Positions 49,718 to 53,515 of a stretch of 64,000 nt of DNA are shown one piece after another. Source of the stretch: Bacteriovoracaceae bacterium. GTDB lineage: Bacteria > Bdellovibrionota > Bacteriovoracia > Bacteriovoracales > Bacteriovoracaceae. A model generated the notes under the pieces. It was given only the letters and a program-made list of their open reading frames with translations, searched no databases and had not been told where the DNA came from. The stretch is from the NCBI GenBank assembly GCA_018675575.1, contig JABGXW010000075.1:1-64000 (forward strand), written 5' to 3'. Positions within the stretch are counted from its first letter, which is position 1, and each line of letters starts with the position of its first letter. Position numbers and translations under genes: made by a program.

Positions 49718-50719
49718 TTATTGGTCAATTGAAGCTTTTAGACTAAATAAACCAGTTTTTCCTTTAAAAATTATTGATGGAATAGGACTTTCACCGTCTT
49801 TTATACCTGGCATGGCATATAACTCTCTGAGTTTAATTTTTCTAGATTTTAAACAAATTTTTGAATCTTTAGCTGTGACTTTGACCGCCATAAACTTAGA
49901 ATCTTCTGCATTTAAATAGATATCAATATTTTGCTTGATTCCTTCATGCACTTGATTAAGCTTCTTGAACCATGATGAAGGTAAAAAGAAAATTGGCTTA
50001 ATTTTTTTCTTCACAAAAGCACTCATCTCCTTCTTTTTTTCATCAGTATTTATATCTTCAAAATAGATCATTGTTTTATTTTTAATTTCTAAAGTTTCTA
50101 GGATATCGTCACCCATAGGCTCATCGATTCTATAAACTAACTTCTTGTCATTTTTAGTAAATAATTGGACGTAGAATTTTCCTTTTGCGGTTCCGAACTT
50201 AATTTTTTTCAATTGATTAACGACATCCCATATATCATTGGAGAGTGTTGTATTTGCAATTTCCAAAAATCCTTGTAGACTTGTTTTTAAGTCATTGTAA
50301 CCAATCTCAAACTCACCAATCTCTGCTATATATCTCATAACCATAACAGTTAATGCTATATTATCGGAAATTAAGTATTTCTGTCTGACGGCCAGCATAG
50401 AATTGAAAATTCCACGTGCAAGGAGAATTAGCTTGTCTTGAGGAATATCTAAGTTTGAAAAGGCTTGTGAAATATCGTCACGTTGTCTGTCGTCGTCAGT
50501 GAGAATATCGATTTGAGGGTCATTGAGATCATCTGAAGTAGGATCAGAATCATCATCTCTCGTTACATCATTTGTCGTTTGCCTGGTTTCTGAAGTAGTT
50601 GATATCGTATTTGAAGATATATCTTCAAAATTTGATTCTAAGCCATTAGAGCAGGAAGTTCCAAATGTTAAGGTAATAAGACATGTTAAAATTAATGTTA
50701 GGAGTTTTTCTTTCATCAT
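49718..50719 (-). CDS. Acidic lipoprotein of unknown function
   Basis: A 333-residue protein with a signal peptide ending in FGTSCSNG (lipobox cysteine at residue 23). Residues about 30-85 are a low-complexity acidic/Thr-rich linker (DDDSDPTSDDLNDPQ). The rest is a soluble globular region with alternating helices and strands and no recognised motif. The second ATG at 50716 is equally possible as a start. Its stop is about 100 bases from the cyclophilin start codon on the same strand. Confidence 0.72.
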   Translation of the reverse strand: MMKEKLLTLILTCLITLTFGTSCSNGLESNFEDISSNTISTTSETRQTTNDVTRDDDSDPTSDDLNDPQIDILTDDDRQRDDISQAFSNLDIPQDKLILLARGIFNSMLAVRQKYLISDNIALTVMVMRYIAEIGEFEIGYNDLKTSLQGFLEIANTTLSNDIWDVVNQLKKIKFGTAKGKFYVQLFTKNDKKLVYRIDEPMGDDILETLEIKNKTMIYFEDINTDEKKKEMSAFVKKKIKPIFFLPSSWFKKLNQVHEGIKQNIDIYLNAEDSKFMAVKVTAKDSKICLKSRKIKLRELYAMPGIKDGESPIPSIIFKGKTGLFSLKASIDQ

Positions 50720-50821
50720 GAAGCAGTTAAACCACAGAAATAAATTCAGGTAAAGAGTGCTTGTAAAACTTCCATGGAGTATTAGAATAAAATGATAAAT
50801 ACCGAAGTTAAGGACTCTTTA

Positions 50822-51280
50822 ATGGAAGAAAGAAATTATTGGAGAAAATGTAGCACTTGTAAGAGCAAGATAGCGTTTGGCTCAATCTATCAAAAATGTA
50901 ATGTTTCAACCTGTCGAAAAAATATCTATTGTTCTGTCGATTGTTGGGATGTTCATAATCCTGTTATGAATCATAAGTCGTCTTGGGCAGAAGAAGAACG
51001 CGCTCCAAATAAAGGAGAAGAACTTGCTAGGCGAGAACCTCAAAGAAGAATCGTACCTTCAAAACCTTCTGGTATGAAAACCATTCCAACTGGAGACTAT
51101 GCTCTCGATATTTTAATTGTGGCAAGTAAACTGAAGGCCTATATAAAGGCAAAGCATGACATGAATACCTCTGGAAATGTCATGGAAGCCTTATCTGGTA
51201 TTGTGAGATTAGAGGCTGATAAGGCCTGTGAGAAGGCCAGAGCAGATGGCAGGAAAACTTTAATGGCCAGAGACTTTTAA
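50822..51280 (+). CDS. Zinc-finger protein fused to a bacterial histone fold
   Basis: The start at 50822 (152 residues) has AAGGA seven bases upstream; ATG 50792 would add ten residues with poor spacing. Residues 10-51 hold eight ordered potential zinc ligands, C10, C13, C26, C31, C37, C41, H45 and H51, a cross-brace like MYND, HIT or ZZ fingers. After a basic linker, residues about 92-152 match a histone fold: LDILIVASKLKAYIKAKHD (alpha 1), an alpha 2 helix to EKARADG, then GRKTLMARDF, the RKT...RD end also seen in archaeal and Bdellovibrio histones. Helix 3 is cut short. The likely role is DNA-associated, with the finger binding DNA or protein. Confidence 0.8.
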   Translation: MEERNYWRKCSTCKSKIAFGSIYQKCNVSTCRKNIYCSVDCWDVHNPVMNHKSSWAEEERAPNKGEELARREPQRRIVPSKPSGMKTIPTGDYALDILIVASKLKAYIKAKHDMNTSGNVMEALSGIVRLEADKACEKARADGRKTLMARDF

Positions 51281-51283
51281 TTG

Positions 51284-51310
51284 AAAGGCCATCCTAATAG
51301 GATGGCCTTT
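51284..51310. terminator. Bidirectional terminator-like hairpin
   Basis: AAAGGCCATCC (51284-51294) and GGATGGCCTTT (51300-51310) form a perfect 11-pair stem with a five-base loop right after the histone-fold gene stop. Its A and T ends serve both strands. It separates two convergent genes. Confidence 0.8.
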
Positions 51311-51339: not shown

Positions 51340-51618
51340 TTATCTTCTAGCATTTTTATTTCTAGCATTTTTAATTCTTTGGTCCTTTTTAATTTTTTGG
51401 TGCTTATTTCTAGCATCTTTAATTCTGTCATCATTACTGTCGTCTGAACGACCTTCATTAGTTAAAGCTGGTCGATCTGATTTGACTTCGGGGAGTTTAA
51501 ATTCTTTATCAAATGAAGTACTGGTTTTCTTTGTATCAACTAATTTGTCGCTGTTTGTGTCAGCATTTGCGCTGAAAGTCATAAAAGCTAATGATGCTAA
51601 TAGGATGATGTTTTTCAT
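51340..51618 (-). CDS. Small exported protein with basic repeat tail
   Basis: A 92-residue product with signal peptide (to about ANA, residue 19). The mature part ends in near-repeats DRIKDARNKHQ and QRIKNARNKNARR, making the tail very basic. AGGAG sits before the ATG. No family is recognised. It is divergent from the ECF sigma operon, which also encodes a basic exported protein. Confidence 0.7.
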   Translation of the reverse strand: MKNIILLASLAFMTFSANADTNSDKLVDTKKTSTSFDKEFKLPEVKSDRPALTNEGRSDDSNDDRIKDARNKHQKIKKDQRIKNARNKNARR

Positions 51619-51752: not shown

Positions 51753-52406
51753 ATGTCGATTAAAACTAAAACGAAACTTCTAGCGTTAAAACTCGTAGGA
51801 ATAGGGAATGTAAGTGATTTTGAGCTTATGCAGCTTATAACTAACGGTAATCGTGGAGCTTTTGAAATGATGTACAACACGTATAAAAGACCGATTTATA
51901 ATTTTCTCCTTAACCTTATGAAAGGTGATGAGAAAACTGCTGAGGATCTTTTACAGGATACATTTCTAAAGGCCTTTCATCGTGCAAACCAGTTTAAAGA
52001 AGATGGTAAATTAACGGCTTGGCTTTGGGCCATAGCTAGAAATAATGCTTTTGACACATTCAAAAAGAAAGATGCATTAAATTTTATCACCACACTTACT
52101 AATGAAGATGGTGAAGTTATTGGACCCGAAAACTTAAGTATAGAGATGACTGATGCTGAAAAGATTTTAATAAAGAAGTTAGAAAGAGATGAAGTTCATC
52201 ATTGTATTGATAAATTGAAAGACAAACCAAAAGAAGTTGTGATGTTACAAATGTTTTCAGATCTTAGTTATGAAGAAATTTCAGAGAGTGTTGAAGCGAG
52301 CGTTAGTAGTATAAAGTCTCTGTTAAATAGAGCACGTAAATCTTTATTTGCCTGCTTAAAAGGAATAAAAGAGAAACAAGAAAACGAAAAAGGAGGGTCA
52401 AAATGA
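51753..52406 (+). CDS. ECF-type RNA polymerase sigma factor
   Basis: A 217-residue group 4 sigma factor. Region 2 is visible at about 25-95 (GAFEMMYNTYKRPIYNFL, AEDLLQDTFLKAF, LTAWLWAIARNNAFDTFKK), and region 4 at about 145-200 (KPKEVVMLQMFSDLSYEEISESVEASVSSIKSLLNRARKSL). Region 3 is missing, as expected. The next gene overlaps its stop (ATGA), and four genes in a row are coupled, so it likely controls its own operon and an envelope response. Confidence 0.93.
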   Translation: MSIKTKTKLLALKLVGIGNVSDFELMQLITNGNRGAFEMMYNTYKRPIYNFLLNLMKGDEKTAEDLLQDTFLKAFHRANQFKEDGKLTAWLWAIARNNAFDTFKKKDALNFITTLTNEDGEVIGPENLSIEMTDAEKILIKKLERDEVHHCIDKLKDKPKEVVMLQMFSDLSYEEISESVEASVSSIKSLLNRARKSLFACLKGIKEKQENEKGGSK

Positions 52407-52744
52407 AAAAGTTATATTTCAAAGAATTGGCCAAGAAAATTGAAGTCGATGTGCCTAAAGAGCTCGATCATCGAATACTTTCGGCAATACCTTATGAAGA
52501 AGAAGAAAACTTTTTTAAAATAGGCTTTTCTTTTGCTTTAGCTGCTTCATTGGCCTTTATCATTTATATGAATTTTGGAATTAAAAAGACTCGATTAGAA
52601 GAAAACTCATATGCCATCTCAGAAATGATGGAAAATAAAGATATGTATGAACAAATGGAATTATTAGGACAAATTGAAGATCTAGAGCTAAGTGATGCGG
52701 ATTGGAAGATCTTGCTCGAACAAGAGGAAGAAACGGATGTTTAA
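52403..52744 (+). CDS. Putative anti-sigma factor, single-pass membrane protein
   Basis: A 113-residue protein whose N-terminal 40 residues (FKELAKKIEVDVPKELDHRI) would be cytoplasmic, with one membrane helix at about 43-62 and an acidic outer part. Size, topology and ATGA overlap with the ECF sigma gene make an anti-sigma role likely. No zinc-binding HxxxCxxC motif is seen, so it is not a ZAS-type anti-sigma. The call is from position and topology more than sequence. Confidence 0.7.
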   Translation: MKKLYFKELAKKIEVDVPKELDHRILSAIPYEEEENFFKIGFSFALAASLAFIIYMNFGIKKTRLEENSYAISEMMENKDMYEQMELLGQIEDLELSDADWKILLEQEEETDV

Positions 52745-52925
52745 AAAAATACTGTACGGAGTATTTATAGTGACCTCATTACTTGCATCAGAAGCTATAG
52801 ACGAAGAAATAATTAAAGACTTAGAATTTTTTACAGATATGGAAATGGTCGAAGAAGAATTTGTTGAATTATCAAAAGAAATTGATAGCAAGTTATTAAC
52901 AGCAGAAATGGAGACAGAGCAATGA
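52737..52925 (+). CDS. Small acidic exported or membrane protein
   Basis: A 62-residue product from ATG 52737, which has GAGGAAG upstream and overlaps the previous stop by eight bases. A hydrophobic start (1-17) is followed by a strongly acidic segment with many Glu and Asp. It overlaps the next gene by four bases. No family is recognised. Its charge is opposite to that of the basic DUF3106 protein encoded next, so the two could interact. Confidence 0.7.
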   Translation: MFKKILYGVFIVTSLLASEAIDEEIIKDLEFFTDMEMVEEEFVELSKEIDSKLLTAEMETEQ

Positions 52926-53515
52926 AAGCAATAATATTGGTGACATCTATCTTATTCTCTCTAAATATATTAGCACAAGATCAAGTGAGTGAGGCTGTGA
53001 AGTCCAAGCCGCTAACTGACAAGTATAAATCTGCTAGAGAGAAATTTAACAAGCTTTCACCAGAGGATAAATACATATTGAGAGAACGCTATAGAAAGTA
53101 TTTAAAGCTTCCACCAGCGGCTAAAGAGATATTGCAAAAAAGACACATTGAGTGGAAAAAACTATCACCAGAAAATAAAAAGAGACTTAAAAGACAATAT
53201 AAGCAATTTAAAGACATGGATAAAGTAAAAAGAGAAAGACTTCTCGAACGTTTAAAGAAGTTCCAAAAGATGAGTCCTGAAGAAAGAGAAAAAAGACTTG
53301 ATAAGCTTAAAGCATTAAAAAGGGCGGCGCATAAGGGTAAGAGAGATTCTATAGAAAGGAAGTTACGTTTTTTAGACATTATTAAAGGGCGTAGGGATCC
53401 AAGAAAAATTCGAAAAAGGGCAAGAATGAGAAGGGATCGCAACAATAATACAACAGGTGATACTAATGTAGATCCATATACTCCTCCTCCAGGAGGTAGC
53501 TCCCCTTTCCCTTAA
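52922..53515 (+). CDS. DUF3106-like basic periplasmic protein
   Basis: A 197-residue protein with signal peptide (1-19) and repeated helical units of the DUF3106 type: LSPEDKYILRERYRKYLKLP, LSPENKKRLKRQYKQFKDM, MSPEEREKRLDKLKALKR. The Arg/Lys content is very high to about residue 170, followed by a Pro/Gly tail. DUF3106 proteins often lie beside ECF sigma genes, and their role is not established. The ATGA overlap with the previous gene makes it the fourth member of the sigma operon. Its stop overlaps the ABC-F gene by four bases. Confidence 0.85.
   Translation: MKAIILVTSILFSLNILAQDQVSEAVKSKPLTDKYKSAREKFNKLSPEDKYILRERYRKYLKLPPAAKEILQKRHIEWKKLSPENKKRLKRQYKQFKDMDKVKRERLLERLKKFQKMSPEEREKRLDKLKALKRAAHKGKRDSIERKLRFLDIIKGRRDPRKIRKRARMRRDRNNNTTGDTNVDPYTPPPGGSSPFP

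What the first reader, a model, noticed from the sequence alone, without database searches (positions are those of the whole stretch)
50822..51280. Zinc finger fused to a bacterial histone fold
One 152-residue gene joins an eight-ligand zinc module (C10, C13, C26, C31, C37, C41, H45, H51) to a histone-fold segment ending GRKTLMARDF with a shortened third helix. Histones are rare in bacteria but known in Bdellovibrio. Zinc-finger-bearing prokaryotic histones have been noted in surveys, yet I know of no functional description. It could be a nucleoid or partner-recruiting protein. It has its own terminator and no obvious operon partner.
Basis: partly seen in the sequence, partly recalled or inferred. 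Interest (0 to 1): 0.82.

Follow-up and report, generated by a model that had tools for sequence, protein, structure and literature searches.

The report
Zinc-finger (ZZ) histone of predatory bacteria
This gene encodes a small bacterial histone with a two-zinc finger module on its front end; it belongs to a class named in 2024 but never tested, and relatives that lack either the zinc part or the histone part show that the two halves can exist separately.

Summary
Window 50822-51280 (+) encodes 152 residues: an N-terminal eight-ligand zinc module (C10 C13 C26 C31 C37 C41 H45 H51), a flexible linker, and a C-terminal bacterial histone fold with a truncated third helix. The histone part matches the solved Bdellovibrio histone HBb by sequence (E 7e-10; profile 5e-16) and predicted structure (Foldseek probability 1.0). 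Nine of HBb's ten main DNA-contact residues and its RD clamp are present. All eight zinc ligands are invariant in 78 homologous modules, and a deep-alignment model of the module (pLDDT 93) is closest in shape, weakly, to eukaryotic ZZ domains. This is a "ZZ histone", a class described by Schwab et al. 2024 and never tested, so it is a new member of a known kind. Best model: a dimeric DNA-bending histone that carries two tethered zinc "readers" which recruit or sense an unknown partner on DNA.

The parts
50822..51280 (+). CDS of the zinc-finger (ZZ) histone, 152 aa plus stop
50761..50788 (+). weak sigma-70-like promoter match TTGTAA-16-TAGAAT (9 of 12; number found in the region is near chance)
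50810..50814 (+). AAGGA ribosome-binding site, 7 nt before ATG
   Evidence: read directly
50840..50995 (+). zinc module, residues 7-58; ligand spacing C-x2-C-x12-C-x4-C-x5-C-x3-C-x3-H-x5-H; probable sites C10/C13/C37/C41 and C26/C31/H45/H51 (site assignment inferred from the cross-brace folds)
50996..51103 (+). flexible linker, residues 59-94 (pLDDT below 50 for 72-95)
51044..51055 (+). conserved linker motif RRIV (residues 75-78; family form RRI(I/L)V), kept in zinc-less orthologs
51104..51277 (+). alpha3-truncated bacterial-dimer-type histone fold, residues 95-152, with DNA-contact residues and RD clamp R144/D151
51284..51310 (+). 12-bp hairpin, terminator-like (also reads on the - strand toward the convergent gene)

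Best explanation
It is a ZZ histone. The C-terminal histone fold dimerises and binds DNA without sequence specificity in the manner of HBb, bending it (inferred from conserved contact residues). The N-terminal two-zinc module, tethered by about 35 flexible residues, is displayed in two copies per dimer and acts as a reader that binds a partner, most likely a peptide or protein surface, so that the protein brings that partner to DNA or senses it there. It is probably a specialised, low-abundance nucleoid adaptor, not the bulk packaging histone: the genome has a second, stand-alone histone, and the Bdellovibrio counterpart is reported as weakly expressed. Shown: both domains, their conservation and their separability in evolution. 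Inferred: DNA bending, zinc occupancy, dimer, recruitment. Unknown: the partner.
For: Histone identity by sequence and fold. HBb's DNA-contact residues (N22 R57 S9 T53 T8 S24 K10 K12 K52 K16; PMC11317129) map at +93 to N115 R150 S102 T146 A101 S117 K103 K105 K145 K109: nine of ten identical; RD clamp R144/D151 and D142 kept; most are invariant across 22 homologs. The zinc module is the best conserved region (mean column identity 0.82, histone 0.78, linker 0.46), so it is under its own constraint. It is modelled confidently (pLDDT 93, pTM 0.78), and the nearest solved folds are ZZ domains, including p62, BIG, PRT1, KCMF1 and HERC2, most solved with bound peptides. The module exists without a histone in at least 24 genomes, and the histone exists without the module at the same locus, as expected of a separable reader plus DNA anchor. 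A second histone-like gene lies in the same genome (L097). Low expression of the B. bacteriovorus ZZ histone: PMC11390915.
Against: Schwab et al. [quoted passage not shown] The fold match to ZZ is weak (best E 0.065, TM 0.45-0.58), and no Pfam ZZ model appears among the hits listed at E up to 10; MYND, FLZ, HIT and VATC treble-clef families match weakly instead. No partner gene is conserved across the phylum. No expression, zinc or DNA-binding data exist for this protein.
Confidence: 0.55

Rival explanations
1. The zinc module is a second DNA/RNA-binding element, so that the dimer has two kinds of DNA contact (bridging or tighter clamping) and recruits nothing.
For: The conserved flank and first knuckle are basic (W-R/K-K-C..C-K-K), 10 K+R against 7 D+E in residues 1-60. 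15 of 24 stand-alone zinc proteins end in a basic tail with ILRR/ILRK or a close form.
Against: Nearest folds are peptide-binding ZZ domains. Nine of 24 stand-alone forms have no basic tail (69-97 aa). The module carries a conserved acidic A-E-E segment.
Confidence: 0.27
2. It is a bulk nucleoid-packaging histone in which the zinc module only stabilises or spaces the protein.
For: HBb-like histone part. Zinc-less orthologs at the same locus show that the histone part can do without the module.
Against: The module is the most conserved part. The counterpart in B. bacteriovorus is scarce (PMC11390915) and cannot readily replace HBb (PMC10627809). A second histone is present here (L097). The module survives alone.
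Confidence: 0.12
3. The protein works in NAD/nucleotide metabolism or its regulation with the NUDIX/nucleotidyltransferase encoded next to it in several genera; the histone fold is used to dimerise or to target that enzyme to DNA.
For: Overlapping or nearly overlapping same-strand neighbour (gap -56 to +24 nt) in 20 loci of several genera, zinc-less forms included; Pfam NUDIX 2e-19 plus CTP_transf_like 9e-9.
Against: Not adjacent in the window, in its two genus mates, or in other families, so the link is a local operon.
Confidence: 0.06

Closest known systems
ZZ histones (Schwab et al. 2024, PMC11390915; example D0LYE7 of Haliangium ochraceum)
   Same: N-terminal two-zinc module, linker, bacterial-dimer-type alpha3 histone at the C-terminus; first four ligands have the same numbering (C10 C13 C26 C31 in their profile); Bdellovibrionota member.
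   Different: Four residues shorter between ligands 4 and 5 (x5 here, x9 in most other families). Ligands 5 and 6 are C-x3-C in all 88 modules with a parsed spacing; the paper prints C51/C53 and C41/C43, which does not fit that spacing.
HBb / Bd0055 of Bdellovibrio bacteriovorus (bacterial dimer histone; PDB 8cmp, 8fvx, 9ezz, 9f0e)
   Same: About 48% identity over the fold, same truncated alpha3, RD clamp, nine of ten DNA-contact residues.
   Different: HBb has no zinc module or linker; HBb is abundant.
Bd3044 of B. bacteriovorus
   Same: By elimination the ZZ histone of that species: one of its two histones, longer and scarce (PMC10627809). A single-contig genome of 3,782,950 bp (G132; the size I recall for strain HD100) has one full-length match at 2.955 Mb plus one other histone match.
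   Different: 186-codon open frame and the x9 form of the zinc module (L084).
Eukaryotic ZZ domains (p62, BIG, PRT1, HERC2, KCMF1)
   Same: Nearest solved folds to the modelled module; cross-brace two-zinc arrangement.
   Different: TM about 0.5, E above 0.06, 12-22% identity; ligand spacing differs; pocket residues not conserved according to Schwab et al.
MYND / HIT treble-clef zinc fingers
   Same: Y/F-C-S-x2-C (C-x3-C) followed by H; weak Pfam matches (MYND best 0.0019 of 78 members; HIT 0.44).
   Different: The window protein is far below the curated MYND threshold (8.5 against 22.7 bits); fold search ranks ZZ above MYND.

Membership tests
ZZ histone (alpha3 histone subclass) | N-terminal zinc module with C4 and C2H2 sites | tested here: met
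   Eight ligands invariant in 78 modules; model pLDDT 93. Zinc binding itself not testable.
ZZ histone (alpha3 histone subclass) | C-terminal bacterial-dimer-like histone with truncated alpha3 | tested here: met
   HBb is the top hit by sequence and fold; helices 96-112, 118-141, 149-151
ZZ histone (alpha3 histone subclass) | zinc module is of ZZ fold | tested here: inconclusive
   Foldseek ranks 1-20 are ZZ domains but E is 0.065 or worse; no Pfam ZZ match listed
Bacterial dimer histone (HBb type) | DNA-contact residues and RD clamp | tested here: met
   nine of ten contacts and R144/D151/D142 conserved
Bacterial dimer histone (HBb type) | dimer in solution that bends DNA | not testable with these tools
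   no multimer prediction, no experiment
Pfam zf-ZZ (PF00569) | match to the family profile | tested here: not met
   absent from the hits listed at E up to 10 for 22 full-length proteins and 78 modules (HMMER filters hide many weak matches, and one search shows only the first 25 of 33 families)
Pfam zf-MYND (PF01753) | match above the curated threshold | tested here: not met
   window protein E 2.8, 8.5 bits against cutoff 22.7; best member E 0.0019

The most novel reading that the evidence does not exclude
The zinc module is an independent, undescribed bacterial reader domain that can be carried to DNA either by a fused histone or by a short basic tail, with repeated loss or gain of each half; a simple bacterial parallel to modular chromatin readers.
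Probability: 0.3. Interest if true: 0.72.

Novelty: new member of a known kind. Interest (0 to 1): 0.5.

Why it matters
Bacterial histones are newly established, and almost all work concerns bare histone folds. ZZ histones are a bacterial class fused to a reader-like module and have no tested function. The natural series found here (full-length, zinc-less at the same locus, zinc-only) gives ready-made constructs for asking what the module does, and shows that a survey based on histone folds alone misses the stand-alone zinc proteins.

Tried and rejected
Chance resemblance: rejected by conservation in 59 of 129 family genomes. Phage or plasmid origin: no match in phage or plasmid records; in viral contigs only two bare histone folds, not examined further. 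Conserved neighbourhood for the window gene: none shared, even with its genus mates. Zinc-only genes as artefacts of frameshift: no histone-like frame in the 2-6 kb fetched around any of 24; one other locus (L183, G194) does look frameshifted. Profile search of the zinc module against PDB sequences gave only chance-level matches, mostly cytochrome c3. NCBIfam gave nothing. The linker motif regex was strict (43 of 76 zinc-bearing, 7 of 7 zinc-less, 1.8% in shuffled linkers); several 'misses', the window included, carry a close variant (RRIVP, RRIVS). Trees rest on about 60 columns and are weakly resolved.

Full report
What is there. Window 50822-51280 (+) encodes a 152-residue protein. The start is supported by AAGGA at 50810-50814 and by the starts of homologs. 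The gene stands alone between a divergent gene (49718-50719, no Pfam family) and a convergent small ORF (51340-51618), with a strong hairpin directly after its stop (51284-51310, z -5.2). The window lies in a 3.7 Mb draft genome; its nearest named relatives are Halobacteriovorax and Bacteriovoracaceae MAGs.

Histone part. Residues 95-152 match the crystal structures of HBb/Bd0055 at E 6.7e-10 with the single sequence and 5e-16 with the family profile, followed by the Leptospira histone HLp and archaeal HTkC. The predicted model finds the same entries by fold (9f0e, TM to target 0.80, probability 1.0). With the +93 offset, the DNA-contact residues named for HBb (PMC11317129) are identical in nine of ten positions; only T8 is replaced (A101). 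The RD clamp (R144, D151) and D142 are kept. Most of these are invariant in 22 homologs. DNA binding and bending by a dimer are therefore likely but not shown.

Zinc module. Ligands C10 C13 C26 C31 C37 C41 H45 H51 are invariant in 78 modules from across the phylum. The spacing is 2-12-4-n-3-3-5, with n = 5 in the window's clade (33 loci) and 9 elsewhere (54 loci); one locus deviates. The model of the full chain was poor there, but the deep alignment of the module gave pLDDT 93 and pTM 0.78. Foldseek then ranked ZZ domains first (p62, BIG, HERC2, PRT1, KCMF1), then MYND proteins, none of them significant by E-value. Pfam gave weak matches to MYND, FLZ, HIT and VATC treble-clef models and listed no ZZ match. 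I conclude that it is a ZZ/MYND-like cross-brace with its own sequence signature, roughly W-[RK]-x-C-x2-C-K...C-x-V-S-x-C...[FY]-C-x3-C-[WF]-x2-H-x5-H.

Known class. Schwab et al. 2024 (PMC11390915) define ZZ histones in just these terms and report low expression in B. bacteriovorus and no conserved peptide pocket. Hocher et al. 2023 report that the second B. bacteriovorus histone, Bd3044, is longer, less abundant and cannot readily compensate for HBb (PMC10627809); it is by elimination the ZZ histone. A review (PMC11318664) says deletion of both genes is lethal, but the passages on Bd3044 found in the primary paper do not describe its deletion. Searches of the held literature found no functional study of a ZZ histone. 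So this protein is a new member of a known, untested kind.

What the relatives add. (a) Zinc-less orthologs: in genera g3, g15 and g17, proteins of 81-104 residues (L092, L093, L095, L096, L154, L155; L094 has a longer open frame) keep the RRI(I/L)V linker motif and the histone. Those of g3 and g17 lie between the same neighbours as full-length genes of other genera (a conserved antisense gene before, the nucleotidyltransferase after or nearby), and those of g15 share the gene after. On a weakly resolved tree they fall inside the zinc-bearing set as two changes. This points to loss of the module in place. (b) Zinc-only proteins: 24 loci in families f2, f3, f12, f14, f20, f24, f25 and f26 encode the module in 69-161-residue ORFs with no histone-like frame nearby. 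Fifteen have a basic tail ending in a form of ILRR/ILRK; nine, including a six-genome clade in f14, end soon after the module. Genomes with the module have a single copy, with one exception, so zinc-only forms replace rather than accompany ZZ histones. Seven changes between alone and fused are needed on the weak tree. In all, 174 of 369 phylum genomes have the module. (c) Operon: in several genera the gene overlaps or nearly touches a same-strand gene with a nucleotidyltransferase domain, in some with an N-terminal NUDIX domain. The window gene is not so placed.

Mechanism. The reading that best fits is a DNA-anchored adaptor: the histone dimer holds DNA, and two tethered zinc modules read a partner. 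The module's own constraint (0.82 mean column identity against 0.78 for the histone and 0.46 for the linker), its life without the histone, and its fold class support a reader. The basic first knuckle and the basic tails of stand-alone forms keep the nucleic-acid-binding rival open.

Limits. No dimer prediction, no ligand docking, no expression data for this organism; phylogenies rest on about 60 columns; members outside Bdellovibrionota were not compared.

Noticed in passing
L097:1450-1710 (G000 contig 93): The same genome has a second, stand-alone histone-like gene (86-aa frame, ...LLVGSKTKEALKD...GRKTVRGTDF), probably a face-to-face type; assignment to that type not tested.
   Followed up: partly
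G093:C127:1709-2098 and many other family genomes: Histone doublets: two histone folds in one open frame of about 140 aa are common in Bacteriovoracaceae, often beside a ZZ histone in the same genome. Hocher et al. mention doublets as a size class.
   Followed up: no
L166-L171 (family f14): A clade of six genomes encodes only the zinc module, in ORFs of 72-97 aa with almost nothing else; the smallest natural form of the domain.
   Followed up: partly
PMC11390915, Fig. 4 legend: The printed ligand positions C51/C53 do not fit the C-x3-C spacing seen in the modules here (C51/C55 expected); possibly a numbering slip. D0LYE7 itself was not available.
   Followed up: partly
L158, L159 (IMG/VR contigs): Two viral contigs of about 44 kb encode an HBb-like histone fold; the match does not include the zinc module.
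   Followed up: no
window 51753-53515: ECF sigma factor (Sigma70_r2/r4) overlapping a 113-aa possible anti-sigma protein, followed by small and Lys/Arg-rich secreted-looking proteins: a likely sigma/anti-sigma operon next door.
   Followed up: no
L183 (G194) and G034:C7:4409: Two homologs appear disrupted: in L183 the zinc part and the histone part are in different open frames, and G034 has an internal TAA; assembly error or decay not distinguished.
   Followed up: no
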